From the NCBI GenBank assembly GCA_023512835.1, contig CM042090.1, positions 52,005,365-52,069,364 of the forward strand: a DNA stretch of 64,000 bases, written 5' to 3'. The position numbers and the translations under genes are program-made. The notes under the pieces are model-generated. The model had not been told where the DNA came from, made no database searches, and saw nothing but the letters and a program-made list of their open reading frames with translations. This document shows, one piece after another, positions 31,510 through 64,000 of the stretch. Within the stretch, counting starts at the first letter, position 1; every line of letters begins with the position of its first letter. This DNA comes from Taxillus chinensis. Its lineage: Eukaryota > Streptophyta > Magnoliopsida > Santalales > Loranthaceae.

Positions 31510-32996
31510 TGTCTATAGGTTTTGCAGCAAGTGGACTGGTCAAGTAATAAAATGGAGTATTAAGACTCCGGTTGTCGAACCCACAGGGAGGTAGCTAATG
31601 CTGTTAAGCAGCAAGCACTAAGCTAACAAGTTGATTTTATGTCTAGACAATTGATGTTTGTTGTGCAAATATTTTGAACAAAAAGATATTAAATTAGAAT
31701 GTTGGCAAGCGGTTGGTATAGACATCTAGGGTCACAATGTTTACCACCCAATCGATTGTACTTATCTGGTTATGGCTCTTGTTTTTGATTTATGTTCTAG
31801 TTCAAGTTCATGTTGATTATCTCCTACCTATCTTACATTTGGTCCATGCTAAGATAGATTTAAGGCTTTTATCCCATTTGGTCCATGTGAATAAAAGTGA
31901 TCAAGGTAGATAAACAATCTAATAGTTGTAGACTTGGTCCATCATACAATATTAAATCTAATTCACTAGTGTTCCACCCTAGACAAGGGCTAAGATTACC
32001 TAATTATGCATAAACTAGGCATTTCCATTCAAGCAAGTGAATTAAACAAGAACTGAATTCTATTTTATTGAACAACTATAACCAAACTGAATACAATTTA
32101 TTGGGGGCTACATTGCTCCCCTAGACTAATAAAACTACTCCATAATCATGACAAAAGCAATAACAATTACAAGAAAGAACATGATTACAGTACCAGGACA
32201 ATAAAGGAAGACCCCAAGATGAACCAGGACTCCAGCCTCCAAAGACTCCGGCGTCTGCTGCCCAAACTCACTCCTTGCCAAGGATAATCCGATCTTTTAG
32301 CAATGGCTATAGCTCTTTTCAGAACTCAGATCAGATTCTCCCACTCAAGATGATTTACAATGCCTCCAAAGACCCCTATTTATAGGTTTTAGTGGGCCAA
32401 ATTAGGGTTACAAAAGGTGTGCCCTAATTATAAATGTGGTCGCAGCCAAAACGACATCGTTTTGGTTAGTGACACTAATCGACGTTCTAGGTGAAATAAA
32501 ACTCAAACTACACCAAATTTGACCCCAGTTCTTTAGAGTAAAATGATTAAAACAACAAAATACATCATTTGGAGCGCAAAAATGCTTGCACGTGAGAATG
32601 CACGTGAGAAGACCCTTTTCACGTGCAGCTCCAATTTGACTCAAATTTGCTCCAAAGCTTCCTCTTGAGTTGTAGAAGGCATCCATGCAATACAATCCTT
32701 GCACGTGAGAATGCACGTGAGAAGGCTTTTCACATGCACCTTGATTTTGCCTTCATTTTGCTTCCATTTTCTTCCTATAGCTTCCTTGTAAGTTGATGGA
32801 GTGATCTAGCCAAAGTGTGTGGGACAAGGTTGCTCCAAAACCTGCCAAAAACACTTAAAAAGTACCACTATACACCAAACAGGGTCTTCCTAGGGGTTAG
32901 AGCACATATGTCAAAAATAACATGCAAATAGGTACAAAACATACTCTAAAACACCCTATATAAGGCATAGGATAACGGCAGAAATGCACGTTATCA
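31510..32996 (-). repeat. Athila B 3' LTR
   Basis: The minus strand starts TGATAACGTGCATTTCTGCC at 32996, directly after the polypurine tract. The other end is placed at TGTCTATAGG (31510, plus) because this gives TG...CA; that end is inferred, since the second LTR is not in the window. The length of about 1.49 kb suits Athila. It includes a TATA box and an ACGT palindrome (32375-32465) and two CACGTG cassettes (32587-32632 and 32700-32745). Confidence 0.75.
32375..32465 (-). promoter_or_regulatory. Athila B LTR promoter: TATA box and ACGT palindrome
   Basis: On the minus strand CCTATAAATAGG lies at 32386-32375. About 60 bp upstream of it, at 32446-32465, is CCAAAACGACATCGTTTTGG, a near-perfect palindrome with the same arms as those in the Tekay LTRs. 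Transcription would start near 32345. Confidence 0.55.
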
Positions 32997-33012
32997 AATT
33001 CCCCCATACTTG
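32997..33012 (-). other. Polypurine tract, Athila B
   Basis: The minus strand reads CAAGTATGGGGGAATT immediately before TGATAACG. It is preceded by the GAGGACAAGCAAAGGTT stretch that I know from Athila-type elements next to the 3' LTR. Confidence 0.8.
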
Positions 33013-33685
33013 AACCTTTGCTTGTCCTCAGGCAAAAAGAAATAAACACACAGTCAAACGGAAAAGAACGAATAAACTAACAAACAAGAGAGGCATGGTT
33101 TCCCAAGGCATACAATTCTATCATGATGAAGTAGACATTCCAATAGCTAAAAATGAATCATAAGTTAATCAAAACATGCCCTTAATATTAAGTCCAACAA
33201 CCATGTAATATCATTACTAACAGTTCAGATAGAAGCAAACATGCCAGGATAAAATAAACTGAGCTCCCCCTGAAAGTCCTCACCAAGGTTAGAGCAGCCT
33301 CACTTAAATGTCACTTTCTTTTCTCTCCTCTCAGGCCCTACTATCAATGCCTAACAGCTAAGGATTTACTCTTACACCCACTACTAACTATTGATTAAGT
33401 TTTGCCACGTAAACATAAGAGATCCCCATTGTGCTCGTCAAGGAAAACACACCCTCTAGTCTACTTTTGGACCAACACTTGGAGCTAAAGATGGAAGCTC
33501 ACACTTGTGAAACAAATTGCAAGACAAAACAACTTAGCCATTATGGCTGCAACACAAAAACAAAAACACATATAAACAGTAAGCCATTGTGCCTTTTATT
33601 CTGGCAAACACTTTTTTTTTCTGTTTCTTTGTTTTTTGTTTTTTTTTTGTTTTTTTTTTTTCACACTTATTTTTAGTAATAACCT
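33013..33685 (-). other. Athila B 3' non-coding region, left part
   Basis: No coding seen. It contains a poly-T stretch (about 33605-33662, plus strand) with interspersed G. It ends at AACCT (33681-33685), the Ogre target duplication, and continues at 59671. Confidence 0.65.
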
Positions 33686-41356: not shown

Positions 41357-41874
41357 TGTCACGCCCCGGATTTCCAACCCGAGGAAACCGGTACGTGACT
41401 CCCCATTCACCCACACGGAGGGCAATGGGGTTGGATTACTGGATGCCACACAAGCAAGTCTAACAATTGCAATAAATCAAATAAGCCACATCTTTATTTA
41501 ATTCCAAAACATCAAAGGTTCACAAAACAACCAAGTCCCTGATTACAGTTCAATCCCTTAGTACATTCCCCTCCTTGGGGTTACATAAATCATAAAAGTA
41601 CATTACTGAAATGAACAATAAAGTGGAGAGGGTCTTCCACCTTGGTGTATCCACCTAACGCCTGTAAGTCCCTGGAAAAGAAGCAAACACAATAGGAGGG
41701 GTGAGCAACCACAGCTCAGTAGGGATCAAGTCTCCCCAACCCATCCCATGTTCCTAGCATCTACATGCCATGTGTACAAGTGCAGTGTTGTGTTACAATA
41801 ATTTCAACAAACATAATAAAAACCACATCAACAATTACAACCTTCCCCTCGCCACAGGCTAACACTTTATCCAC

Positions 41875-42003
41875 AAGTGATTTAACCGCCTCTTCAGGCC
41901 AAGTGATTTAACCGCCTCTTCAGGCCAAGTGATTTAACCGCCTCTTCAGGCCCCTTGGTTTAACCGCCTCTCAGGCAAAGTTGTTTAACCGCCTCTTCAG
42001 GCC
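41875..42003 (-). repeat. Minisatellite in Tekay 2 LTR
   Basis: About five units of 24-26 bp, AAGTGATTTAACCGCC then TCTTCAGGCC, with variant units. The array stands where Tekay 1 LTRs have the unrelated CCCGGG repeat. The second LTR has it at about 49184-49338 with one more unit. Confidence 0.85.
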
Positions 42004-42602
42004 AGATACCACAGTCAAGCACACCACACACCATGGTCACTCAAGCATACAACCAAACACTTGGTGTACACCCGTTCACAAGCGCACAAACCCAGCCATT
42101 CAGGCCATAGAGCAAACATCCAGCATACATACATACACTAAACCACAAGTCCAGTCACCCGGACATAATACCAAACACATAATGGGCATACACACACAAC
42201 TAAGTTCACACAGGCATTTCATCAAACATGTAGCAGGCATGTCATACGGGCATTTTATCAAACACTTTTCATGCATCACACAAACACCGAAACACCAAAA
42301 TCGCCATTGAAGGCCAACATTCATATAGGAGGTCACACCTATATGAATTTACATATAAATAATATAACGAGATATAACTCATATTCTGCCCCTAGGACCC
42401 TAGGACAGAGGAGGACTTAGGAAGAACAGAATCCTTACCTTAAAACAGATCTTCCTTGCTCCCGCGTAAACGCCGTCCTCCCCACGCTAGATGCTCCTGG
42501 CAGACCGGCAAGACTCCCCTTCCTTCTCTCTCTCTAGCTCTCTCTCTCTCGACGGCCGCAGCAGTGAAGAGAACCCTAAACCTAAAACAGAGAGCTTCTC
42601 CT

Positions 42603-42682
42603 CCTTATATAGACAACACAACATCAAAACGGCGTAGTTTTGATTAAGTGAATCCCAAAGATCAAAACGACGTAGTTTTGAT
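42603..42682 (-). promoter_or_regulatory. Tekay 2 LTR promoter: TATA box and two ACGT palindromes
   Basis: On the minus strand TATATAAGG ends at 42603, preceded upstream by AAAACTACGCCGTTTT (about 42626-42641; one base off the palindrome) and AAAACTACGTCGTTTT (about 42664-42679). The layout is the same as in Tekay 1. Confidence 0.58.
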
Positions 42683-43115
42683 CACACAAGTTAGCACCTT
42701 TCCGCACCCATATAGGCCAAAATACTCAGAATTTCAACATGGTCCTTTGGAGAAAGTTCATTAGAATGACAAAACCAAGGGAACCATGCAAAAATATGCC
42801 TGCACGCCAATTTGCACGTGAATTCCCCAATTCACGTGCAACTCCATATGCACTCCAAATGCTCTCAAACTTCACCCCTAGCCTCCTTGCATCATTTAGA
42901 AGACAACTACACTTGCACGTGAATTGGACCCATATCACGTGCACCTCACATACATGTCCATTTGGCCTGGAAACTTCTGTGGTAGATAGAGGACATCATT
43001 CTAAGCATCCTTCCTTTTTGCACGTGAATTCATTGGAGTCCATTTACTAGGTCAAAATCTAGAAAAACTCTACTCAGGAGGCAAAACTGACTAACTCAAG
43101 GTACGGGTCCTTACA

Positions 43116-43131
43116 TCCTCTCCCCCTTAAG
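43116..43131 (-). other. Polypurine tract, Tekay 2
   Basis: Minus CTTAAGGGGGAGAGGA directly before TGTAAGGACCC. Confidence 0.87.
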
Positions 43132-43442
43132 ACTTTTCGTCCTCGAAAAGAAATGACATAAGAGGAAAACAAACACAAGCTACCCATTTGCCACACGGCG
43201 AGCCACAACACCCTAATGGGTCATACACCACACACAAGACAACAAAGACATAACAAGTACCACCATAATCCATAACCACAATAATGCACACAACACGTCC
43301 GCATGGCACGAATACACATCTCAAAGCACATCACAATTAAGCACATGTCTTTAAAAGACAATACAAATACATCAACTAATACAAGAAAACACATCACAAG
43401 AAAACACAACACTATCCCTTGGCCAACAGCCACCTCCCACGC
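43132..43442 (-). other. Tekay 2 3' untranslated region
   Basis: A/C-rich on the plus strand, no coding. It includes GACTTTTCGTCCTCGAAAAG beside the purine tract, an inverted-repeat-like stretch shared with other Tekay elements. In Tekay 1 most of this region is deleted. Confidence 0.65.
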
Positions 43443-43688
43443 TTAAGATTGTTCGTCCTCGAACAAGTCTGGGTGCTGCTCACGCATCACGGACTCACGT
43501 TCCCATGTCTCCTCCTCAATACCACGGTGTTGCCACAACACGCGAACCAAAGGAATAGCACGACCACGCAATAGCTTCTCTCGCCGATCCAGGATACGGA
43601 TAGGGGCCTCAATGACGAACATGTCATCCTCAATGTCCAACTTCCCCCAATCAATCACATGAGTGGGGTCAGGGTGATACTTCCGCAA
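43443..43688 (-). pseudogene. Tekay 2 integrase C-terminal chromodomain
   Basis: Eighty-one codons: RKYHPDPTHVIDW, an acidic stretch, then the chromodomain core FVIEAPIRILDRREKLL and IPLVRVLWQHRGIEEETW, ending QHPDLFEDEQS with a natural stop at 43443. A TAG at 43689-43691 separates it from integrase at the HVS-LRKYH joint, where Tekay C reads Gln (NVSQLRRYH); CAG to TAG is the simplest account. The chromodomain core itself is unbroken. Such domains are known to tether integrase to modified histones. Confidence 0.9.
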
Positions 43689-44766
43689 CTAGGACACGTG
43701 AAACACGTTGTGCACTCGACTCAGCTGCGGTGGTAACGCTAACCGGTAGGCCACAGGCCCTACACGATCCAGAATCTCAAAAGGACCAATAAACCGCGGA
43801 GATAGCTTGGAACCTCGCCCAAACCGTCGATGTCCACGACGTGGAGAGACACGAAGGAACACATGATCACCAACAGAAAACTCCAAAGGTCGCCGTCGCT
43901 GATCCGCATAAGATTTCTGCCGACTCGAGGCCGACAACAAACGCCGACGAATCAACTTGACCTTCTCGGTAGCCTCTTGAACCAACTGTGGTCCCAAGAG
44001 AGCTGTCTCCCCCACCTCGGTCCAACACAAAGGGGATCGACACGGCCGTCCATACAACGCCTCAAAAGGAGCCATCCCAATGGATGCCTGATAACTGTGG
44101 TTGTAGGCAAACTCCACCAAAGGAAGGTGAGTTGCCCACGAACCCCCAAAATCTAGCACACAAGCCCTCAACATGTCCTCCATGGTCTGATTCATCCGCT
44201 CGGTCGACCGTCGGTCTCGGGGTGAAAGGCTGTACTCAGGTGAAGCTTGGTCCCCATAGCCTCCTGCAAACCTGCCCGAAACGGGAAGTGAACCTCGAAT
44301 CCCGGTCCGAGACAACCGATGAGGGTACGCCATGCAGTCTCACAATCTCGTTCATGTACAGCTGACTCAAGGTCCCAATAGAGTCCCGCTCGCGAACAGC
44401 CAGGAAATGGGCCGACTTTGTGAGTCGATCCACAATTACCCAAATCATATCCTTCCCCCCAGTGGTGGGTGGAAGACCAGTCACAAAATCCATCGCTATA
44501 TGGTCCCACTTCCACTCCGCTATGGGCAAGGGCTGTAACATGCCCGCCGGCCGCTGATGCTCAGCCTTCACCTGCTGACATGTGAGGCACCGCGAAACAA
44601 AGGCAGCCACATCGCGTTTCATCCCAGGCCACCAAAAATGTGCCCGAAGCGCATGATACATCTTCGTACCCCCCTGGATGCACAAAGCAACTCTAGATCG
44701 GTGAAACGCCCTCATCACCTCATCCCCGAGGGAAGAAGCCACTACCAACCGCCCCTGAAATGACAA
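43689..44766 (-). pseudogene. Tekay 2 integrase
   Basis: From 44766: FHRSRVALCIQGGTKMYH and CLTCQQ (zinc domain), MDFVTGLPPTTGGKD with the first Asp, [13 protein letters not shown] with the second. Around 44205-44290 there are two one-base changes: one in the run after TSRF, and one within the [12 protein letters not shown] motif that carries the catalytic Glu (reads ETDGRPSG in this frame). The rest reads from MEDMLRACVLDFGG through GRPCRSPLCW and HRRFGRGSKLSPRFIGPFEI. The catalytic Glu motif is thus lost to a frameshift. Confidence 0.9.
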
Positions 44767-46415
44767 CTCATGCTCAGGACCCTCTGTCTGGTCCCCAGGA
44801 TAGCTCCCCCGGCCTCAATACGGGCACGGAGAACCTCGCACTCAATGTCACCCAGCTGTTCCTCCCGGACGCGCTGGTACAACTCAGGCACTACCACCAA
44901 AGGACTCAGGACTGTCCCACCATCACGAACAATAGGCTGCAGCTGCAACGTCGCCAACTGCTCCATCAGCTTCCACTCTCTCACGGCCACCTCAGCTTTC
45001 CCTTTTCTGCTCAACGCATCAGCCACAACATTACCCTTGCCCGGGGTATAGGCAAGAGTAAAGTCAAAGGTCTGCAAATACTCCACCCATCTCCTTTGCC
45101 TCAAATTCAAGTCCTTCTGAGTAAAGATGTACTGAAGGCTCTTGTGATCTGAGAACACCACAAACTTTTCCCCCAAGAGGTAGTGCTGCCAACTCTTCAG
45201 GGCGAAGATAACAGCCGCTAACTCAAGGTTATGAGTAGGATAATTCTGCTCATGAGGCTTCAGCTGCCTTGACCCATAAGCTACCACACTGTGCTCCTGC
45301 ATAAGCACACACCCCAAACCAACCCTGGACGCATCACAGTACACTTCATATGGAATATCCTCCCGAGGTAACCTCAACACCGGTGCAGTGGTCAAACGGG
45401 TTTTGAGAGTCTCAAACGCCTGCTGGCACTTGTCCGTCCACTCAAATTTCACTCCTTTCCTAGTCAACGCCGTCATAGGAGCCGCCAAACGGGAGAACCC
45501 CTCGACAAAACGACGATAGTACCCCGCCAAGCCAAGAAAACTACGGATCTCAAAAACGTTGGTTGGCCTCGCCCACGATGCCACGGCCTCAATCTTGGCT
45601 GGGTCCACCCTAACTCCCTCAGCTGACACCACATGGCCAAGAAAGTGAACCTCCTGCAGCCAAAACTCACACTTGCTAAACTTAGCGAACAGCTGCTGGT
45701 CCCTCAAGGTTTGCAACACTGTTGCCAAGTGCTCCACATGCTCCCTCTCGGTCTTGGAATACACCAAGATATCATCGATAAACACCACCACGAACGAGTC
45801 TAAGTATGGGGCAAAGACTTGGTTCATCAAATGCATGAACACTGCTGGCGCATTAGTGAGCCCGAAAGGCATCACTACCCACTCATAATGCCCATACCTG
45901 CACCGAAAAGCCGTCTTAGGGATGTCCTCCTCCCCAACCCCGAGCCGGTGATACCCCGACCGTAAATCTATCTTGGAAAACCACCGGGCCCCACTCAATT
46001 GGTCAAATAGGTCATCTATCCGAGGCAACGGGTACTTGTTCTTCACATCACCCGAATTCGGCTTCCTGTAGTCGATGCAGAGACGAGCGTGCCATCGGCC
46101 TTCTTAGCAAAGAGCACCGGGGCACCCCAAGGTGAGGTACTCTGTCCGATATACCCCCGACCCACCAACTCCTCGATTTGCCTCTCGAAGCTCCCTCAAC
46201 TCGGCTGGCCCCATACGATACGCTACTTGGGAAATCGGACCCGTCCCCGGCACCAACTCAATGGTGAACTCCACACTCCTCTTAGGTGACAAACTCCTCA
46301 ACTGCTCAGGAAAAACATCCTGAAATTGGTCCACAACAGCGGGCCACACCCTCTTTTCCACCTTACCCTCCTCGACAAAGGTCGGGCCGCTAACCTGTGG
46401 GTAATGGCACCCCAC
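44742..46415 (-). pseudogene. Tekay 2 reverse transcriptase and RNase H
   Basis: The first part (46415-46104) gives AVVDQFQDVFPEQLRSL and [17 protein letters not shown] frame change follows, then a 434-codon open stretch from 46046: [37 protein letters not shown] at 45782-45771, [31 protein letters not shown]. RNase [55 protein letters not shown]. All catalytic residues I can place are intact, making this the best preserved of the minus-strand Tekay RTs. It ends with the spacer to integrase ([11 protein letters not shown]). Confidence 0.93.
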
Positions 46416-46790
46416 TGGTCCAACACCGGCCCGGCCCGACTCGCCTCACAATCCCACTCCCCCTGCAGGGTGCAAGAGGTCCCTGCAGGTGTCACGAAGG
46501 TCACACGCCGCCGATAACAATCTATCTTGGCCTGGAAAGCCATAAGCCAATCCATACCCAAGATCAGGTCAAACGTTCTCAAAGGCATCACATGCAAGTC
46601 AAAACTCGGCTCCACCTCACCTATGGTTAACACACAATCACGACACACTCGTCGTACCTCAATCATGCCTCCTACCGGAGACTCCACAACTAGGGGCCTC
46701 GCGGCCTCCACACAAGGCTAACCCCAAGCCGTCTATTACAAGCTCGGCAACAAACGAACATGATGCACCCGTATCGAAAAGAACGGAGAA
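46298..46790 (-). pseudogene. Tekay 2 aspartic protease
   Basis: The minus strand reads FDTGAS with the Asp codon at 46775-46773, then after an indel EAARPLVVESPVGGMIEV and the FDLILGMDWLMAF motif. DTGA is intact. The order (after gag, before RT) is normal. Confidence 0.82.
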
Positions 46791-46999
46791 GCTAATGTAC
46801 GGGAGATCAAGAGGGTACCTCTAACCACCGATGGTCTGCTCCACCCTCAGCTGGTGGGGGTGGTAGCTCGGCCTCCTCCTGGTATGTCGCCTCCAGCGCA
46901 AACACCCTCCCCTTGGCCCGTGCCACCTGGTCGGCTCACTCACTGGTCGCTTCCCGCTAAGGTTGCCTCCAGCCTCGGTCTGCTGCCGCTCCGGCCTCC

Positions 47000-48233
47000 C
47001 CTAGGGTCGGGTCTGACTAGATCCTGCCTGGCTGGCCTGCCACTGACGAGCTGGTCTCTCAGCTGGTGCACGGAAGCTAGCATCACTCCTCACGCCGGAT
47101 GCCGCGCCCCCTGTTCCCCTGTTGCCACTCCCGCAAACCCGGCGCAAATGACCCTCTCGTCCACGTTGTTGCATCGCCGGTCCTTCTTGGGGCACTCCCC
47201 TTTGAAGTGACCCTGCTCTCCACAAGAGTGGCATCCGCTCGGTAGACTCCCGGATGGACCACCCTATCTTCCGCCGCTAAAGGTGAACCTCCCAGGGTTC
47301 ACGGATGTCCGACCCCGACCGCGAAAAGAAGCTGCTATCCCTCTCCTCCGTCTTGAGCCTCTTGGACCCTGCATCTCGATCAGGCCCACTCTGCAACCGG
47401 CGCCCCCGATGGGCCTGCCTCCCACCATCCGGCTCTCTCTCGGCTATACGGGCCGTCTCCACGGCCTCGGCATAGGTCCTCAAGCGTAGAATTGCCACCC
47501 TCTCCCTAAGGGCTGGCCTAAGACCCGAGTGAACTTGTGGGCCTTCAGGTCCTCCTTTGCCACTGTCTCGGGGGCAAACCTACTCGAGCTTCGGAACTCC
47601 CGCTCATACTCGGGCACCGTCTTTGATCCTTGCTTCAGGCTGCCAAATTCCTCCCTCTTCTGCCATCTCACTGATTCCGGAAGAACTCATCATGGAAGAG
47701 TTGCAAGAATTCCTCCCAAAACATGAGTTGCACTGCACGGCTCCCCGCTACACTCGTCCACCACTCCAAAGCATCCCCCCTCCAGTGCCCGAATTGCCGT
47801 CGCACCTTATCCTCCTCCCGGGGCAGGAGAAAGGAGAACACATGCTCAATCCGCCTCAACCACTGCTCGGCTACCACAGGATCTTCTCCCCCCCTTAAAT
47901 CGCGGAGGTTGTTCCTTTCGGAACCGTGTCACCACGTCATCCTCTGCACGGGTCGGTACACCACCCAGCGAACTCTCACGCTCACGAGGCAGCTCTCCTA
48001 CTGGTGGTGGTGGTGGCACCACCTGCTGTGCTGCCATCTCACGGCGCACCTCCTCCCGAACGTCCTGCCGGAGTCCCTCCCGTAGCTCTCGTACCTCCAG
48101 CCGGATGCCTTCTTGTAGCTGTGCCAGTAACAACGCATGCCCTCCAACGGATGGCCCCGCACCCGGACCCTCATGGGCAGATGACTCATCGGTCCATTGC
48201 CCCGGACGCACGTGTCACTCTCCTCGGTGGCAT
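47000..48233 (-). pseudogene. Tekay 2 gag
   Basis: The ATG at 48233 matches the Tekay 1 gag start (PPRRVTRASGA). Conserved pieces are AHEGPGAGPSVGGHAL, QEGIRLEVRELREGL, EQWLRRIEHVFSFLLP, KTVPEYEREFRSSSRFAP and EDLKAHKFT, read from several frames. Near the end, the segment matching the Tekay 1 zinc knuckles is poorly preserved (about 47150-47230). Multiple small indels make it non-functional. Confidence 0.8.
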
Positions 48234-48650
48234 TCTTACTACATGAAGTAAGATGCACAAACGTCAGAACGCGTTTGACTACTAACAAGTTGACCACCTC
48301 TACCCCATTATCAAGTCAAGCCGTACATGGCATTACACACATTTTAACCATTGCATCAATCAATATTGCACACAGCACAGTCCACATTGTAGTCATACCC
48401 AAGGCATTCCAAGAATATTCAGAGTTGCACAGTTCACACATGATCATGTTATGCACATCCTTCACACATGACAACAAATGCAACTACTGCCCTAATGCCA
48501 ATGCATGCAAATCCTACCACAAGACTGGACTACCCTAAGTACACCTTGGAGGCTCAAAGAGGACCATGTTGATCAGGCATGTCCCTCCAGGCTCCTCCAA
48601 AGGACTCAAGATAACCAAGTCTGCCCACTACCCTAGGCCAACTAGACCAT
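48234..48650 (-). other. Tekay 2 leader
   Basis: Non-coding leader, nearly the same as 13894-14310 in Tekay 1. Confidence 0.6.
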
Positions 48651-48662
48651 GCTCTGATACCA
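48651..48662 (-). other. Primer binding site (initiator tRNA-Met), Tekay 2
   Basis: Minus TGGTATCAGAGC, 3 bp from the LTR. Confidence 0.92.
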
Positions 48663-48665
48663 TAT

Positions 48666-50450
48666 TGTCACGCCCCGGATTTCCAACCCGAGGAAACCGG
48701 TACGTGACTCCCCATTCACCCACACGGAGGGCAATGGGGTTGGATTACTGGATGCCACACAAGCAAGTCTAACAATTGCAATAAATCAAATAAGCCACAT
48801 CTTTATTTAATTCCAAAACATCAAAGGTTCACAAAACAACCAAGTCCCTGATTACAGTTCAATCCCTTAGTACATTCCCCTCCTTGGGGTTACATAAATC
48901 ATAAAAGTACATTACCTGAAATGAACAATAAAGTGGAGAGGGTCTTCCACCTTGGTGTATCCACCTAACGCCTGTAAGTCCCTGGAAAAGAAGCAAACAC
49001 AGTAGGAGGGGTGAGCAACCACAGCTCAGTAGGGATCAAGTCTCCCCAACCCATCCCATGTTCCTAGCATCTACATGCCATGTGTACAAGTGCAGTGTTG
49101 TGTTACAATAATTTCAACAAACATAATAAAAACCACATCAACAATTACAACCTTCCACTGCCACAGGCTAACACTTTATCCACAAGTGATTTAACCGCCT
49201 CTTCAAGGCCAAGTGATTTAACCGCCTCTTCGGGCCAAGTGATTTAACCGCCTCTTCAGGCCAAGTGATTTAACCGCCTCTTCAGGCCACTGGTTTAACC
49301 GCCTCTCGGGCAAAGTTGTTTAACCGCCTCTTCAGGCCGGATACCACAATCAAGCACACCACACACCATGGTCACTCAAGCATACAACCAAACACTTGGT
49401 GTACAGCCGTTCACAAGCGCACAAACCCAGCCATTCAGGCCATAGAGCAAACATCCAGCATACATACATACACTAAACCACAAGTCCAGTCACCCGGACA
49501 TAATACCAAACACATAATGGGCATACACACACAGCTAAGTTCACACAGGCATTTCATCAAACATGTAGCGGGCATGTCATACGGGCATTTTATCAAACAC
49601 TTTTCATGCATCACACAAACACCAGAAACACCAAAATCGCCATTGAAGGCCAACATTCATATAGGAGGTCACACCTATATGAATTTACATATAAATAATA
49701 TAACAGATATAACTCATATTCTGCCCTAGGACCCTAGGACAGAGGAGGACTTAGGAAGAACAGAATCCCTACCTTAAAACAGATCTTCCTTGCTCCCGCG
49801 CTAAACGTCGTCCTCCCCACGCTAGATGCTCCGGCAGCAACCAACAACTCCCCTTCCTTCTCTCTCTCTAGCTCTCTCTCTCTCTACGACGGCTGCAGCA
49901 GCTGAAGAGAACCCTAAACCTAAAACAGAGAGCTTCTCCTCCTTATATAGACAACACAACATCAAAACGGCGTAGTTTTGATTAAGTGAATCCCAGCATC
50001 AAAACGACGTAGTTTTGATCACACAAGTTAGCACCTTTCCGCACCCATATAGGCCAAAATACTCAGAATTTCAACATGGTCCTTTGGAGAAAGTTCATTA
50101 GAATGACAAAACCAAGGGAACCATGCAAAAATTTGCCTGCACGCCAATTTGCACGTGAATTCCCCAATTCACGTGCAACTCCATATGCACTCCAAATGCT
50201 CTCAAACTTCACCCCTAGCCTCCTTGCATCATTTAGAAGACAACTACACTTGCACGTGAATTGGACCCATATCACGTGCACCTCACATACATGTCCATTT
50301 GGCCTGAAACTTCTGTGGTAGATAGAGGACATCATTCTAAGCATCCTTCCTTTTGCACGTGAATTCATTGGAGTCCATTTACTAGGTCAAAATCTAGAAA
50401 AACTCTACTCAGGAGGCAAAACTGACTAACTCAAGGTACGGGTCCTTACA
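48666..50450 (-). repeat. Tekay 2 LTR (5' LTR in element orientation)
   Basis: It pairs with 41357-43115. The minisatellite at about 49184-49338 has one more unit. The G-box hairpin is at 50151-50176. Its end abuts the GTATG duplication (50451-50455). Confidence 0.93.
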
Positions 50451-56713: not shown

Positions 56714-59665
56714 TGTCATCACTGCTTTTCGTCCGGGCCCTTTTGGGGTGAGCTCAAACTAAACCAATGATGAGAAAATTTAGAGTCGCCACCAACTGTT
56801 TTTGGGGTACAGTTGGATACCCTCTACTTCGAGTAGTTTCAAGTGTATGGTCTGCGTTATCAGAGATGGGTTCGGGAGTTGGTTACGTGTAGGGAAGGAT
56901 TAGCACCCCTACAGCGCCCTTTCGGTATCTAATTTAGGAGGAGGAGGTTTTATTTTATTTGTACTGCTGTGATTGGGTTAAATTTCCTAAAAAGTCTATG
57001 ATTTTTATTTGACTAAGTTATTTATCGAAGTTATGGTTAAGATTGATTTACCCTAGGTTTTTAAAGGGAATCCTAAAAGTTTTTTGGTTTTTGTTTGAAG
57101 TGGGGAATGGGATCCTATGGGTTGGTTTTGGGTTTTTGGTTTGGAAATTTAAGTCCTAAAAAACTGGTTTTTTATTTCCCCCTTTTTTTTTGTTTTTTTG
57201 TTTTTTTTTGGGTTAGAAAACACATTTTTTTTGTGTTTTGTAAAAAAACGTTTTGTTTTGGTTTTGCTTTCTTTTGTTTTTTTTGTTTTTGTTTGTTTTT
57301 TTGTTTTGTTTGTTTTTTTTGTTTATTTTTATTTTTATTTTTTTTTGTTTTGTTTTTGGAAGGTAAAGCATGTTTTTTGTGTGTTTTAAAGGGAATTGGA
57401 ACTCCTAAATATGGAAACGTGCATTTTTTAGATGCTTTCTTTTCCCTTTTTTTTTGACTTGAAATACATTTTTTTTTGTTTTGAAAACGTTTTTTTTTTT
57501 GAAATTGAAAATGCATATATCAAAAGAGATGTGGAGTGTGTGAGTGTGCCATCCACAAAAATAAAATCACTCTTTTTTTTTTTTTTTTTCTTCATCCTCT
57601 CCTTTTGCTCTCTCTCTTTTTTCCTTTTGTTGTTTTTTTTTACTACACTTTACATATTACAACATACACATAGGAAGGAATACAAGAAAATACAATGAAA
57701 AAGGCTGAAAAGCAATTACATCAAATATAAATAAGCTAGAAACGAAAATTAGAAAAGATGCTAAAACAATTACACCAAATAGATATAAATAAGCTGAAAA
57801 AAATAGTAGAAAGATAAAAGGGTGAACCGACTTTGAAGCTTTGCAACGTCAATCTTCTGCTTGAGCTCCCGCCGGCGCTGATAGTCCACTTGCTCGACTT
57901 GGAATCGACAGATCTGACAGTGGGACTTATGAAGAAACTTCCCTGGTGTTTGGAGATAGGAGGACTGAAATTGGAGTTTGTAAGGAGTGGATGAGTGATC
58001 TCTGACAGTGGGGCGTTTTCTGATGATAAGGCTGGGGCGTTTTCTGATGATGATGAGGCTGGTTTTGATGATGAAACTGTTTTTTCTCTTTTTTTTTTGA
58101 ACTTCTCTCCTTTCTTTCTTTTCCTTTCTCTCTCTTGTTTTTTTTTTTTGCTCTGTCTGCACTAGGATGAGGAATGGCAGCAGGTTTTCAACGATAAAGG
58201 GGGGGCTCTCTGTTTTTCTTTCTTTTTCTGCACTGGACTGATGGAGGGTGACAGCAGGTTTTCTTCCTTTTTTTTTTCAACGAGCTTCTCCTCCTTCTCT
58301 CAAAGAACTCCCTCTTTTTTTTTGCAGGGACGGGCAACTGTTTTTTTCCTTATGACAGATCTCTTTTTTTTCTCTTTTTTTTTTTTCAACTCTCTATCCA
58401 ACGAAAACCCACACTCCTCTCTTTTTTTCCACGAATTTTCCATTCCAAAAAAAAAAAAAAAAGAATCCCCTCTCGCAGGGACTGTCGAATCCCTCTTAAA
58501 GTGCTGCAGAAAAGCTTTTGGCTCCACTGTCATTAATTGCTGTATTATTTGATGCAGTATTTAATTTGCAGGTTTGGTGCCTTGTCGGGAGGACAGTGTG
58601 TGCGGGAGACAGGGTAACTCGTGATTGCCTTTTTTTTTTTTAAGTTTGTATTTTAGCAGCACATGGGACTGACAGGTTGTTGAGTTATTCCTTGTCTGAT
58701 GGTCAGCGCAGAAGAGTCCCGTGAAGCCAGCGAGAAGAATAAAGGGAAACCCGTGAAAGGAAAAGTCGACGCGAGAAAAGCCAGCGAAAAAGGAATCAGC
58801 GAAGGCAAAAAGGGTCGGAGGTTCGAAGTGTCGGCAGGTCGGAGCGTCGGCAGGTCGAAGCTTCGGTCAACGATGGAGGGCGTACGGGTGCTGCGGGTCG
58901 AAGGTCGGAGTGTCGGCAGGTCGAAGTGTCGGCAGGGTCGAAGCTTCGGTGGGTCGAATTTCGGTGGGGCAAAAGTCCATGGTCAAGGGGTCGAAGTGTC
59001 GGCAGGTCGAAGGTCAACGGTGCTTCAAAGCTTCGAGGCTTCGAGGCTTCGGGGCTTCGGGGCTTCGAGGCTTCGAGCTTCGAGCTTCGAGGCTTCGGGG
59101 CTTCGAGCTTCGGGGCTTCGGGCTTCGGGGCTTCGAGGCTTCGAAGGTCAACGGGTCGCAGTGTCGGCAGGTCAACGGTCAACGGTCAACCCTTTTTACC
59201 CCCACCAAAAATGCAAAAATGGATGACCTTCCAAGGATTGTTCGGGGAGATCCGTGTTCGCCTATATAGGCATTTTGAGGAGTTTCGCCTGATCACTTTT
59301 GCGGGCAGTTTGACCAGGGGCATTGACCGTCTTTTGGCAACTTTGACTTTTTCCAACGAAAGTTGTTTTGGCCATAACTTCTTCATTTTAAGTCCGATTT
59401 GAGCTCGGTCAAGTGCGTTGGTCTTCAATTTTCATCCTCCATCACCTGGTGTTGGTCTTGGGGCGCTTCAAGGACTTGTAGCAAAAGTCATTAATTTTGA
59501 ACTCCCCCATCCGTGTTAATTGTATACATCTCGTGCAGATTGTGGTAGACCATTCCTTGGAAGTATGGGATCATTGTGGACCTGTTCAAAAAGGCATATG
59601 GCATGGGCAGAAAGGTATATCAAATGGGGTTAGTATGTCCAACCCGGACAAAATGGGGTCCAACA
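56714..59665 (-). repeat. Ogre LTR (5' LTR in element orientation)
   Basis: 2952 bp, pairing with 33686-36239. It includes the CTTCGAGG minisatellite and an additional copy of surrounding sequence at 58843-59245, which the other LTR lacks. A TATA-like CCTATATAGG lies at 59261-59270. The T-rich tract is at 57170-58460. Confidence 0.93.
58810..59185. repeat. CTTCGAGG/GGTCGAAG minisatellite in Ogre 5' LTR
   Basis: Short units GGCTTCGA and CTTCGGGG (about 8 bp, about 59035-59145) are embedded in longer units built on GGTCGAAGTGTCGGCA (about 18 bp). The Ser/Arg/Gly- or Leu/Arg-rich ORFs here (58699-59402) are repeat artefacts. The array is missing from the other LTR. Confidence 0.88.
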
Positions 59666-59670
59666 AACCT

Positions 59671-60133
59671 TACAAGGTTGCATTTTATGCTCTCCCTTGA
59701 TGGATTATTCACTCTGCTATTGTCCTCACACAAGCCCCCCTTTTTTTTTTTTTTCAACAAGAACTGAGCGGAAATACTGGAATCACTAACATCATACACC
59801 AAACACTGAGCACAAACAGGTACTTCTTATGCCTAAGTAACTCCAACTATTAAATAGCTAGTAATGAATATTAAGAGCAAATTGATAACCCAATAACCCA
59901 TAAAATATACTCAAAGGCAAGATAATGGTGCTCTCAAAAAGTATATGCCTATTCTGCACTCAACTTCAGGGTTTACAAAGCTCATCCTAACATAACATGC
60001 CTTATACTCATCCTAACAGCTTAGTTCTTGTTCAGAAACGACGTCGTTTTGGCTGGGGGGGAATTTCCCCCCCCCCCATACGTAAACGAAGCGATGTCCT
60101 CAGAGCATGGAAAAAGTAAAAGGAAAAGGAGCA
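59671..60133 (-). other. Athila B 3' non-coding region, right part
   Basis: Continuation of 33013-33685 across the Ogre element. It holds a poly-T run near 59735-59755, a perfect palindrome AAACGACGTCGTTT (60036-60049) and a G6/C10 patch near 60055-60078. No coding. Confidence 0.65.
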
Positions 60134-61360
60134 TTACCGGTTGGTGGGTATGCTATAGTAGAAGATAACATGGGCCACCATTCGTCTAAGACGTGCAACA
60201 AAGTCAGTCGAGGTTTCTCCTGTGAGCGCCCAAGTATCCTTATGCTGCAACAGAGCTATCAAATAATAATAGACAAAAATCCCACAACTGAATTGATCAG
60301 GTTGTTGGGGAAGCTCCATTTCATTGAAGTGCACCAGAGGTAACTTGGATGTCAATAGCCCTTCTTTTCAGAGTGCGGTTTTGATTTTTTTCAAGAAACC
60401 ACGGACAAGCTTCTTCTTTCGTGTGGAAAACCCATGGGCTTGGCTCGGGTCATAAAGGACGGCATGGCCCACAGTCAGGTCCAACTGCAAGAGTACAAAG
60501 TGTCGATCAAGGAGGACCGGTATAAGAACCTCGTGGACCTGGTGCCAAGAGCGATGTCCTTCTGCAGCTCCATTCATCCGCCGGCGGAAGATATGTTCCT
60601 CTAACGGCTGCTCATAAATCTCACACAACATGATAGAAGTGTACTGAGCCATAAGGTAATCGTTGGGTTCGGCTTCCACCACATGTCGCATCGTACGGCA
60701 GAATAAGTCAACGTCATCGGAAGATAAGTACTCATCAGCTAGGATACGCTGCAAATAAGATGACGTGAAGACATCTGAATCACGTGTAAAACATGCTTGC
60801 AAGGTGTCTCCATAAGTAAACTGCTGAAAAGCAGCTGTGGCATCAGCAGTGGAGAGGGCCGGATGAAGATGAATATAGATGGGCTCCCCTAGGTCATCTT
60901 CCTGGGGAGCTTCGGATGATGCGCCAGACCACCATTGCAACGGATGGATTAAGGGAACTAGGGCCTGTGAAGAGCTGGGCCCTGCTAGTGGTGGGAAATA
61001 AACGAAGCTGGCTGGAGGGAAGGGTGACGCGGTGTAGGGCTCCGCCTCTTGCGGGTCTTGTGGATACTCCGGTGTCTCTTCGCTATGCGCAGCGTCTTCG
61101 GTGTCCGGAGGTGATGGTGCGTCAAATGGAGCCTCCACAGGAGGTGTAGGAGTTTTCTTCTTCTTCTTCTTGCCCAGGGCTTTCCGGATCTTACCGAGCA
61201 GCCCTTTGACTTCCTTCTCTGCTCCTTGAGGATGAGAGTTTGATTTTTCTTCGATGCCCGATCTCCTGAACGGTTTCCGCTTGTGCCTCTTGTAGTTGAG
61301 CGGTTTGCTTCCGTAAGTCTTCATAAGAAGCGGCAAGGAGTTGGCTCCGGGGCTTCCCAT
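60134..61360 (-). pseudogene. Ulp1/SENP-like (C48) cysteine protease module in Athila env-position ORF
   Basis: The minus frame from 61360 runs 330 codons, a TGA (60370-60368), and continues in the same frame to 60134. It starts with a basic stretch (KALGKKKKKK), a Pro-rich linker, then an alpha-helical region and the protease end. His is at 60502-60500 in LLDRHFVLLQLDL, Asp at 60451-60449 in VLYDPSQ, Gln at 60304-60302 in LPQQPDQFSCG, Cys at 60286-60284. The His-Asp spacing (17) and Gln-Cys spacing (6) are those of yeast Ulp1, and a LRRMVAHVIF helix follows as in Ulp1. Ulp1 enzymes cut SUMO from proteins; whether this one did is unknown. Only the stop breaks the protease module itself. Neighbours: polypurine tract and 3' LTR downstream; the 61478-62461 domain upstream. 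Confidence 0.82.
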
Positions 61361-61590
61361 GGTCGGGCGGATGGACGAGACGTTGCTTGTTGATCTTGAG
61401 TGATGTACTCGAGCAGCTCATCCAGCTGAAGTCTTGTGATGTGGCCATTAGTGAAAGCCCAGTTAAGAACGTCAACTTCACTGATAACTTGGCCACTGAT
61501 GCCTTGGAAGAAATTGTAGATGTCCTCCTTGTGAACATTGAACCGCATGTACATGGCGATCAACTGGAAGATGTCTTTGTCGGCGGGCAT
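61191..61590 (-). pseudogene. Frameshifted junction of the Athila env-position ORF
   Basis: Three minus frames carry protein-like text in turn: IAMYMRFNVHKEDIYNFFQ with VLNWAFTNGHITRLQLDELL (about 61590-61370), then LLAASYEDLRKQTAQLQEAQ (about 61340-61270, a coiled-coil-like helix), then the frame of 61360 onwards. Together they suggest that one long ORF from 62461 to 60134 was broken here by two or more small indels. I do not recognise a named domain in this segment. Confidence 0.65.
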
Positions 61591-62461
61591 TCATGGGAGT
61601 GGAGGTATCCCTAAGCTGCTCCGTGGGTCGCTCCATATGCACGCTATGACGTGAAGGCTGTGGTGCGACGTGGATACTATCTCCCCATTTGCCCTTGTAG
61701 CTAACTCCTAAAGCACCCTCTGGATGGAGAACTCGTAACCGCAAGTTATCCGGGAAAATAGTGGGGACTACTTGAGCACTAAGATGACCATATTGATATT
61801 GCAGAAGCATGCTAAGTAGTCGACCATATAAGCATTTATAAATGTCCCGTTTCCACAATTTAAAAATTTCCGCAGCCCAATCAATGTGTAATTGGCGATC
61901 GATGCAAAACATAAACTCCAAATGGGATTTAGGGACTGAGTCTACGCCACTAGTTTGTAACAGTAAGCACCTCCCTACCAAATTGGCAAGGCAACGGTAT
62001 TTCCCGTGAAATCCGTTTTTCGTAAATTGCCGACGTTTCCCAAATTCCTTAGTATACTGTAAAGCTCTACCATATTCTCCTAAGGTCAATGCAGGCTTTG
62101 CATGCATGGGATTTGGCAGATCAAAGCAATCTCTCAACAAAGTAGGGGAAATAGAAATTAAGACACCTTGAACCTCCCCAATTATCTCATCATCTTCCTC
62201 ATTGACATAGACTGAATTATAAAATTCTAACATGGCAGGGTAATACAAATCACTGCGAGCGCATACTAACCTTCTCAGTCCCAATGCTTGCAGCTTGGTC
62301 ATAACTTCTTCAATCCAGTCAAGGGTGGAGGACTCCAGGATCTCCCAATCAAGCACATTCCCCACGAAGATAGTGTCGGCGTCTCTCAATGCCGAAGGCA
62401 GAGAGGTGGCAGAGGCTTCAGGACTGCCTTCTCCTTGGCGGGCTCTCCTTGTGTGCACCAT
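61478..62461 (-). pseudogene. Athila env-position ORF, N-terminal part (plant transposon protein-like)
   Basis: The ATG at 62461 gives MVHTRRARQGEGSPEASAT, a basic low-complexity start. Residues of about 45-240 form a region with PAMLEFYNSVYVNEEDDEII, GVLISISPTLLRDCFDLPNP, YRCLANLVGRCLLL and KCLYGRLLSMLLQYQYG. This pattern (W/Y-xx-LVREFY, VRG-xxxxSP-xxIxxxxxLP, then an xxxNxLLP helix) is like the 'putative plant transposon protein' family often found in plant LTR elements. The tail after about residue 280 is out of frame. Upstream is integrase with a 1-kb spacer; downstream the Ulp1-like part. Its function is not known. Confidence 0.7.
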
Positions 62462-63480
62462 GACTAATCAGAGAAGAATTTTTGCTCTCAGCAAGAAAGG
62501 AGGAGAAAGTATGATATGTGAGTTTGAAGCTTGGAACTCATCCTTATTTATAGTGATTCGCCACAAGGGGAAAAGACGAAAATAGCCCTCTTAAAGTGCT
62601 CCATCTTTTTCACGTGCAGACCAAAGAAGACTCTAGAAGATGCCAGCTAGTGCCCACCGAAATTTCAGACTGATTGGCCAAAGGTAGGTGTGCACGTGAA
62701 AAGCGTGTTTTCACGGTCAAAGCTTGGATGACTCTAGACACTGCCAGCTGCTGTCCACCAAAATTTTAGATCAAAAAGACGCGTCTATCACTGTGCACAT
62801 GAAAAGTGTTTTCACGGGCAGGTCTCAGAAGGGACTAGAAGATGCCAGTTGCCGCTGTGCAAAATTTCAGCTCGATTGGACCATTATACCCTTGTGCACG
62901 CGAAAAGACTTTTCACGGGCAAGGCCTTTTTTGTCCAAATTTCGCCTGTAGGTCACGGATGAACTGTAGATTCATTTAAGATGTCAACGTGACATGCTGG
63001 TTCTCACGGGCAAGCTGGTTGACACCCTGAATGAAGCCTAATGATGTTGAAATTTGACAGGCTAGTATCCCATCTCCCAAGGACAAAAACGTGTCAGTTA
63101 GTGGGCCCAAAATACCATCATATAATCCAGAACTTCATCTCCATGGTTTGGCAAGAAATTGGAGTGGGCCCCTCTGATTTAATTCAACTGAACTTAGATG
63201 TGGGCCTGAGAAAATTTAGTTGAAGTTCTGATACACAGGCCCAAGTAAGCCCAAGCTTAAAGAAGCTTCATCAAGGAATTTGGGCCTAGGCCCTGGTTCA
63301 AATGCTGCCAATAAAAGTTAAAACAAAACAGATATGCACTCCCTACAGACTATGGGTTAAAGCACACAATAATAATATCCCAATAAAATAAATAAAATAA
63401 AAGAAAAAGGAAGAGAAATCACCATGGGTTGCCTCCCATGAAGCGCTGAGTTTAGGTCTTTCGCTTGACCGTCCCCGCTG
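62462..63480 (-). other. Athila B spacer between integrase and env-position ORF
   Basis: About 1 kb, no coding. The part nearest the ORF (about 62600-63030) holds four to five imperfect units of about 105-115 bp with paired CACGTG/TTTTCACGGGCA motifs. The rest (63031-63480) is unremarkable. Splice or promoter signals for the downstream ORF could lie here, but I cannot point to one. Confidence 0.6.
62600..63030. repeat. Tandem G-box repeat units
   Basis: Each unit has CACxxGAAAAG, then TTTTCACGGGCA, then GACTCTAGAxxxTGCCAG, then CACCxAAATTT. The pairs CACGTGAAAAG...TTTTCACGG can form short hairpins. Unit starts are near 62611, 62694, 62797 and 62896, with a partial unit near 63002. Confidence 0.7.
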
Positions 63481-64000
63481 TCAAGTTGTGCTCAGAGTGA
63501 AATGATCAACCTCCTTAACATGGTCCTGCATGTAGTATGGCTTCACACGCTGACCATTTACTTTGAAAATTTGTCCAGAGGTTGATTGGAGTTCAACACT
63601 ACCATATGGGAAAACCTTTGTAATAGTGAAAGGCCCCATCCATTTAGATCGCAGCTTCCCAGGAAAGAGTTTAAGTCTGGAATTAAAGAGAAGCACCTTC
63701 TGCCCTGGTTCAACAGTAGAGGGGCTGATCTTCTTATCATGTCTGAGCTTAGACCTCTCTTTGTACAGCTTCGCACTCTCATAGGCATTGAAGCGAAATT
63801 CCTCCAACTCATTTAATTGGTGCAATCGTAGTTCAGCAGCAACATTGGGATCCATGTTTAGCTTTTTAACTGCCCAAAATGCTTTGTGTTCCAATTCAAC
63901 AGGCAAGTGGCAGGCCTTTCCGTACAGTAGACGATAAGGAGACATTCCAATGGGCGTTTTGAATGCTGTGCGATAAGCCCACAACGCCTCATCGAGTTTT
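63481..64000 (-). pseudogene. Athila B integrase, C-terminal part (cut by window edge)
   Basis: Open on the minus strand from the edge ([10 protein letters not shown]) to a stop at 63481, 173 codons shown. It reads [60 protein letters not shown], then [20 protein letters not shown] and [20 protein letters not shown]. These are standard for the C-terminal half of Athila integrase. No break in this part; the D,D35E core lies outside. I label it a pseudogene because the element downstream is broken, not from a defect here. Confidence 0.88.

What the first reader, a model, noticed from the sequence alone, without database searches (positions are those of the whole stretch)
60134..61360. Ulp1/SENP-type protease module in the env position of an Athila retrotransposon
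Seen: in the ORF between integrase and 3' LTR, minus strand, the His (60502), Asp (60451), Gln (60304) and Cys (60286) codons sit in motifs HFVLLQLDL, LYDPSQ, LPQQPDQFSCG, with His-Asp spacing 17 and Gln-Cys spacing 6, as in yeast Ulp1 (His514, Asp531, Gln574, Cys580), followed by a LRRMVAHVIF helix. Known: Ulp1-like genes are captured by plant MULE DNA transposons, and Athila elements carry an env-like ORF here. Inference: this lineage swapped or fused a SUMO-protease-like module into that place, perhaps to counter SUMO-dependent silencing or to process its own protein. I do not know of an established description in Athila, but cannot search.
Basis: partly seen in the sequence, partly recalled or inferred. 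Interest (0 to 1): 0.86.

Follow-up and report, generated by a model that had tools for sequence, protein, structure and literature searches.

The report
Retrotransposon env-slot gene encodes SUMO-type protease
In a plant genome, a retrovirus-like jumping element carries, in the place where retroviruses keep their envelope gene, a gene with a protease domain of the family that cuts the small protein tag SUMO; related genes follow the polymerase genes of two different classes of such elements, and the protein is predicted to help the elements escape silencing by the host.

Summary
Confirmed and enlarged. In the same genome 5 of 10 fetched copies (chosen for stop-free frames) hold the whole C48 domain in one frame with H, D, Q, C; two scanned ones score 38.0 and 40.9 bits. 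Of 116 listed copies, 49 have a listed integrase upstream on the same strand within 6 kb (random 0.155). A distant relative has RT, RNase H, integrase, then one 674-aa frame with Transposase_32-like and C48 domains (52.9 bits). The same gene type follows a copia-type polymerase at three loci, at two of them between direct repeats. Pairwise dN/dS is 0.26-0.55. So this is not a MULE insertion but a widespread accessory gene of LTR retrotransposons. Enzyme activity, SUMO as substrate and the anti-silencing role are inferred. Ten searches of open papers listed none describing C48 in this place.

The parts
63493..64000 (-). C-terminal part of the integrase; the rest of pol lies beyond the window (L017)
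   Evidence: 31.7% over 164 aa to the nested Tat-type integrase, E 2.9e-20; RT, RNase H and integrase continue in L017; 150 scored copies in the genome
61481..62467 (-). Transposase_32-like (TP) part of the env-slot gene, first Met at 62461
   Evidence: PF20167 22.1-22.5 bits, below its cut-off of 45; 30% over 223 aa to the TP part of the L034 frame
60371..61417 (-). Linker and N-terminal half of the C48 domain with catalytic His (60502) and Asp (60451)
   Evidence: 116 scored copies, 76-100% identical, in the genome
60368..60370 (-). In-frame stop (TGA) that breaks this copy
60137..60367 (-). C-terminal half of the C48 domain with catalytic Gln (60304) and Cys (60286); stop codon 60134-60136
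   Evidence: PF02902 21.6 bits
59735..59755 (-). Predicted polypurine tract
   Evidence: A14G6 run seen in the sequence
59671..59732 (-). Predicted start of the element's 3' LTR, cut after about 62 bp by the nested insertion
   Evidence: 43 bp identical to a stretch about 820 bp behind another C48 fragment (L017 6903-6945)
32001..33680 (-). Predicted continuation of the 3' LTR beyond the nested insertion (end not determined)
   Evidence: 32001-32997 matches L018 1949-2945 at 98.6% over 998 positions; the part nearer the insertion found no match there

Best explanation
The minus-strand gene between the integrase and the predicted 3' LTR encodes a Transposase_32-like domain followed by a C48 (Ulp1-type) cysteine-protease domain with all four catalytic residues, and its intact copies would likely act as nuclear deconjugases that strip SUMO or a related tag from host silencing factors. 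Shown: both domains in one open frame directly after RT-RNase H-integrase in a relative; a related gene behind copia-type polymerases; the four catalytic residues in the open-frame relatives aligned; many copies in the genome; more synonymous than amino-acid-changing substitution per site in the pairs compared. Inferred: that the enzyme is active, that its substrate is SUMO rather than another ubiquitin-like tag, that the TP part tethers it to the element or its chromatin, and that the benefit is relief from silencing, by analogy with the VANC genes that carry Ulp1 in Vandal MULEs. The window copy itself is broken.
For: C48 identity. One open frame with TP and C48 behind pol: L034, PF20167 33.0 bits (below cut-off 45) and PF02902 52.9 bits; RT 75% over 117 aa to the window element, integrase 60% over 164 aa. 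Fixed place: 49 of 116 listed copies have a listed integrase upstream within 6 kb on the same strand, 41 of them at 1892-2273 bp; random mean 0.155. Copia-type loci: L016/L023, L031/L032, L029. Constraint: dN/dS 0.33, 0.55, 0.28, 0.26 for four pairs. No transmembrane-like stretch in the pieces. Analogy: KIU-type VANC genes with Ulp1 linked to hypomethylation of related Vandal elements (PMC13317346, passages).
Against: No activity, localisation or substrate evidence. Phe instead of Trp follows the catalytic His, and Ser instead of Asp precedes the Cys, so the substrate may differ. PMC13317346 says that the function of Ulp1 in those MULEs is unknown, and PMC6117577 judges Kaonashi proteins unlikely to act on SUMO (passages). 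The TP match is below Pfam's cut-off everywhere it was scanned. The dN/dS values have no confidence limits and share loci; one is 0.55. Single-sequence models of the two pieces have low confidence and show no strands around His-Asp.
Confidence: 0.55

Rival explanations
1. A C48 protease that serves the element's own proteins: it processes the TP-C48 polypeptide or removes SUMO from Gag or integrase, with no role in host silencing.
For: It sits behind pol as in polyprotein-coding elements, and both superfamilies that carry it have the same need; constraint on C48 fits equally.
Against: Ty3 and copia elements already encode an aspartic protease (established knowledge); no conserved cleavage site was looked for.
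Confidence: 0.2
2. The C48 fold is kept for binding or acts on NEDD8, ubiquitin or another tag, so that the SUMO reading is wrong.
For: Phe for Trp after His and Ser for Asp before Cys; SENP8, a C48 protease, acts on NEDD8 (established knowledge); opinion on Kaonashi proteins in PMC6117577.
Against: H, D, Q and C are kept in all four open-frame relatives aligned and in L034.
Confidence: 0.2
3. The C48 sequence belongs to a MULE, CACTA or other DNA transposon that happened to insert behind integrase.
For: Ulp1 domains are common in plant MULE and CACTA elements; loci L009, L010, L011, L013 and L014 have no resolved LTR context.
Against: Fixed distance to integrase in 41 of 116 listed copies; TP and C48 in one frame behind pol in L034; no long inverted repeats enclosing the ORF within 59600-63600 (only that stretch was searched, and some MULEs lack them).
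Confidence: 0.03
4. A retrovirus-like envelope or movement protein in which the C48 resemblance is incidental.
For: Sense ORFs between pol and 3' LTR of plant elements, Athila among them, are described as env-like (PMC7264820, first of three parts and passages).
Against: No 19-residue stretch reaches a hydropathy of 1.6 in any piece or in P0001; C48 scores of 38-53 bits in uninterrupted relatives.
Confidence: 0.02

Closest known systems
Peptidase family C48 (Ulp1/SENP, PF02902)
   Same: His-Asp-Gln-Cys with Ulp1 spacing; scores above the curated cut-off in the window's C piece and in uninterrupted relatives
   Different: Phe for Trp after His, Ser for Asp before Cys in the window family; fused behind a Transposase_32-like domain in a retrotransposon
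Kaonashi (KIU) and VANC-Ulp1 genes of Vandal/non-TIR MULEs
   Same: Plant transposon gene with a Ulp1 domain; linked to hypomethylation of related elements (PMC13317346 passages; PMC6117577 passages)
   Different: DNA transposons; no VANC or DUF1985 match was found by Pfam in the window pieces
CACTA elements with Peptidase_C48
   Same: C48 domain in an accessory ORF beside a transposase-type domain (PMC8978399 passages; PMC2528002 passages)
   Different: DNA transposon with Transposase_21/24 domains; no reverse transcriptase or LTRs
Ginger1 transposons
   Same: Gypsy-type integrase, grouped with Athila/Tat in that paper, with a C-terminal Ulp1 domain (PMC2836005 passages and Discussion)
   Different: Ulp1 is part of the transposase, the element has terminal inverted repeats and no reverse transcriptase
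Env-like / additional 3' ORFs of Athila and other plant LTR elements
   Same: Sense ORF between pol and 3' LTR; Transposase_32 similarity reported for a sunflower Athila ORF (PMC11728184 passages)
   Different: No protease domain is reported in the passages seen of PMC11728184 or by the term search in PMC7264820

Membership tests
Peptidase C48 (PF02902) | Profile score above the curated cut-off | tested here: met
   21.6 bits for the C piece; 38.0, 40.9, 50.3, 52.9, 61.8, 61.9, 62.6 bits in uninterrupted relatives; the N piece alone gives no hit
Peptidase C48 (PF02902) | Catalytic His, Asp, Gln, Cys in order and spacing | tested here: met
   5 of 10 fetched family copies have all four in one unbroken domain and 2 more have all four before a frame change
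Peptidase C48 (PF02902) | Ulp1-like fold with superposed catalytic residues | tested here: inconclusive
   Only the two pieces were modelled, each as a single sequence: mean pLDDT 54.7 and 62.4
Peptidase C48 (PF02902) | Cleavage of SUMO or a related tag | not testable with these tools
   Needs an enzyme assay
Athila lineage of Ty3 retrotransposons | RT and integrase of the Athila/Tat group | tested here: met
   Best match among the window's elements is the Tat type: integrase E 2.9e-20 against 5.9e-8 and 1.1e-5, RT E 8.9e-37 against 3.3e-25 and 6.8e-24
Athila lineage of Ty3 retrotransposons | No second RNase H between RNase H and integrase (which marks Tat; recalled) | tested here: met
   The Tat RVT_3 stretch has no match in L017, L018 or L034 at E 1; RNase H and integrase matches are about 140 bp apart
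Athila lineage of Ty3 retrotransposons | Grouping with named Athila references in a tree | not tested
   No named plant reference was at hand
Athila lineage of Ty3 retrotransposons | Sense ORF between pol and 3' LTR | tested here: met
   the LTR pairing of the window element is inferred from a partial match
Retrovirus-like env | Transmembrane segment | tested here: not met
   Highest 19-residue hydropathy 1.37 in the window pieces, 0.59 in P0001; hydropathy only
MULE or CACTA insertion | Terminal inverted repeats enclosing the ORF | tested here: not met
   8 short inverted pairs in 59600-63600, none long and enclosing
VANC/KIU | Sequence-specific hypomethylation of related elements in trans | not testable with these tools
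   Needs a transgenic test

The most novel reading that the evidence does not exclude
TP-C48 is a conserved third gene of plant LTR retrotransposons that has moved between the Ty3 (Athila-like) and Ty1/copia superfamilies and fills the env slot in thousands of copies; at least some plant 'env-like' genes are not envelope relics but SUMO-deconjugating anti-silencing enzymes, the retrotransposon counterpart of VANC-Ulp1.
Probability: 0.35. Interest if true: 0.9.

Novelty: new variant of a known kind. Interest (0 to 1): 0.77.

Why it matters
What plant retrotransposons keep in the env slot is debated; plasmodesmata and chaperone roles have been proposed (PMC7264820, first part). A C48 domain gives a concrete activity: an enzyme assay with a Cys mutant and a test for loss of methylation in trans would decide. 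The same gene type behind Ty3 and copia polymerases would mean that distantly related retrotransposons share an accessory gene, much as viruses share anti-defence genes.

Tried and rejected
MULE or CACTA insertion: no long inverted repeats enclosing the ORF within 59600-63600 and a fixed place behind integrase. L015, where an integrase lies upstream of TP and C48, was dropped as evidence: direct repeats 2794091-2794483 and 2799217-2799608 enclose that polymerase and end before the TP, so it is probably a separate element. Protein collection: 3 searches gave one hit, P0001, a 300-aa piece that ends before the C48 core; it follows the window through three frames in order. Viral contigs and bacterial/archaeal genome contigs: no relative confirmed. 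Phages: none. NCBIfam, PHROGs and Rfam: nothing useful. PDB search of the TP part: E 0.55 at best. TP against the DUF7745 ORF of the nested element: no similarity. Models of the two pieces: too poor to use; no fold search was run. No selection test was made on the window's own family.

The best C48 row (L001) had no match to the window pieces and was not followed. The ten copies were chosen for stop-free frames. Listed matches are the best 116 of 5993 and 150 of 8048 first-look candidates, so 49 of 116 is a lower bound and includes the window itself; in the random control one contig length (C8) was a guess. In one search the frame of L037, L043 and L044 was picked by a simple word count and may not be the best one. 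The first try at the hydropathy script failed and was rerun. An earlier count gave slightly different figures (nested element 33,684-59,668; 42 copies at 1.9-2.3 kb); the recounted ones are used here.

Full report
What was claimed. The tools had to decide whether that is real, whether it belongs to the retrotransposon, and what it does.

The window copy. The gene is broken: an in-frame TGA lies inside the C48 region, and between the TP and C48 parts the frame is lost. I kept the pieces apart. The C piece alone exceeds Pfam's cut-off for Peptidase_C48 (21.6 against 20.7 bits), is reached by 0 of 5000 shuffles with a profile of four solved proteases, and is first among 401 ORFs of the window. 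The N piece alone is weak: no Pfam or PDB hit, and 87 of 2000 (76-aa piece) or 252 of 2000 (150-aa piece) shuffles match its score. What is unusual is that His and Asp fall on the catalytic columns: at that score or better 11 of 5000 and 31 of 5000 shuffles do so. In the background scan of 401 whole ORFs the 349-aa ORF did not come up for the His-Asp pair and one unrelated ORF did; for Gln-Cys the C piece came up with two others.

Relatives settle the domain. Pieces of the window match C48 loci of the same genome: the N half 39% over 79 aa (E 4.9e-14) and the C half 46% over 74 aa (E 7e-19) at a locus with 62.7 bits for PF02902. A relative's C48 ORF aligns with the window at E 1e-19. In an alignment of the four solved proteases with four open-frame relatives (two of them near-identical inverted copies), His, Asp, Gln and Cys are present in all, and His-Asp and Gln-Cys in the two window pieces. 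Of ten family copies fetched over the C48 region, chosen for stop-free frames, five hold the whole domain in one frame with all four residues, two hold all four before a frame change, and three show no unbroken domain in the frame picked. The two that were scanned score 38.0 and 40.9 bits with PF02902; one of them matches human SENP1 in the PDB at E 0.0033. Two of the 116 listed copies lie in open frames of 774 aa without a stop; from the Met at 62461 to the stop at 60134 the window has room for 775 codons.

It belongs to the element. The window's element continues beyond the window with integrase, RNase H and RT on the same strand (RVT_1). Window 32001-32997, taken as part of the 3' LTR cut off by the nested insertion, matches a stretch upstream at 98.6% over 998 positions; the 688 bases nearer the insertion found no such match there, so the pairing is inferred. 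A second C48 fragment near by (68% over 50 aa) is followed about 820 bp later by the same LTR start, 43 bp identical. Across the genome, 116 scored copies of the C48-bearing piece (of 5993 first-look candidates) and 150 of the integrase piece (of 8048) were compared: 49 of 116 have a listed integrase upstream on the same strand within 6 kb, 41 of them at 1892-2273 bp; one same-strand pair has integrase downstream and one pair is on opposite strands; random placement gives a mean of 0.155.

A deeper relative. At L034, RT (RVT_1, E 2e-30), RNase H and the integrase zinc domain are followed by a 674-aa open frame with Transposase_32 (33.0 bits, below its cut-off of 45) and Peptidase_C48 (52.9 bits). 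Its RT is 75% identical to the window element's over 117 aa and its integrase 60% over 164 aa, while TP and C48 regions share 30% and 25%: the accessory gene has changed faster than pol, yet the catalytic residues remain. No LTR pair was found for L034 within the 20 kb read. Neither element shows the second RNase H of Tat elements, which with the integrase and RT similarity points to Athila; no named reference was compared.

A second superfamily. L016 holds a 1059-aa TP-C48 frame (C48 50.3 bits; TP part 24% to the window's over 227 aa, E 1e-18); L031 and L029 are its relatives (84-86% in the long matches). Upstream on the same strand lie copia-type sequences: at L031/L032 gag_pre-integrs, Pol_BBD, rve and SH3_retrovirus and RT and integrase matches; at L016/L023 SH3_retrovirus and RT and integrase matches; at L029 an RT match (53-79% to the copia element of the window over all these matches). 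At L016 and L031 the gene lies between direct repeats of 790 bp (95.6%) and 1942 bp (87.7%), about 1.7 and 0.4 kb from the downstream one; at L029 no own pair was recognised. So the same gene type sits in the env slot of Ty3 and copia elements. L012 has TP and C48 between direct repeats of 365 bp (80.8%) with no polymerase found; L009, L010, L011, L013 and L014 have no resolved context. TP-like matches lie upstream of C48 on the same strand at 9 of the 11 C48 loci fetched (none at L011, none by the window's TP at L029).

Selection. Nei-Gojobori dN/dS is 0.33 (L016-L029), 0.55 (L016-L031), 0.28 (L029-L031) and 0.26 (L010-L012); the C48 part gives 0.27 and, on only 6 synonymous and 7 other changes, 0.35. 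This suggests constraint, but there are no confidence limits and three of the pairs share loci.

Mechanism. C48 enzymes cut SUMO or related tags (established knowledge of the family). The pieces have no transmembrane-like stretch by hydropathy, against an envelope role. Ulp1 domains recur in MULE, CACTA and Ginger elements, and KIU-type VANC genes are linked to hypomethylation of related Vandal elements (PMC13317346, passages). I therefore commit to a nuclear deconjugase that relieves host silencing, with the TP part as the tether. Each functional step is inference. Phe instead of Trp after His and Ser instead of Asp before Cys in the window family, and the opinion that Kaonashi proteins are unlikely to act on SUMO (PMC6117577, passages), call for caution.

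Novelty. Ten full-text searches of the open PMC library listed no paper that by title or abstract start, or in the passages I read, describes a C48 domain in an LTR retrotransposon. A term search of the review on additional ORFs found neither Ulp1 nor C48 (PMC7264820), and the passages of the sunflower paper report Transposase_32 similarity but no protease (PMC11728184). Most listed papers were not opened, among them the one that holds PF02902 and gypsy. Subscription journals and repeat libraries were not searched. I call it a new variant of a known kind: C48-bearing transposons are known; this placement, and its spread over two retrotransposon superfamilies, is what looks new.

Noticed in passing
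window 33686-59665: Nested minus-strand LTR element (direct repeats 33686-36239 and 56714-59665, 2500 of 2534 aligned positions identical; AACCT on both sides) inserted about 62 bp into the predicted 3' LTR of the C48 element; it carries RT, two RNase H-type domains and integrase (Tat type) and a DUF7745 domain upstream of gag.
   Followed up: partly
window 41357-50450: Third-level nested Ty3 element: direct repeats 41357-43115 and 48666-50450, 98-100% identical in the longer blocks, inside the Tat-type element.
   Followed up: no
window 62607-62925: Diverged repeats of about 101 bp, 67-70% alike, between the integrase end and the TP part; not reported by Tandem Repeats Finder.
   Followed up: no
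L033, genome C6:17792584-17795308: A second TP plus C48 pair some 5 kb upstream of the L034 polymerase, on the same strand.
   Followed up: no
L010 and L011, genome C2:27767376-27787659: TP-C48 region present as an inverted duplication, 99.4% over 5620 bp, 9 kb apart.
   Followed up: no
L031/L032, genome C1:40203188-40221580: Copia-type TP-C48 locus with a third related long repeat and a further C48 end, as if two units shared LTRs in tandem.
   Followed up: no
whole genome (G000): PF02902 gives 4308 first-look candidates; all 150 scored ones pass the curated cut-off, so C48 genes of mobile elements may be very many here.
   Followed up: partly
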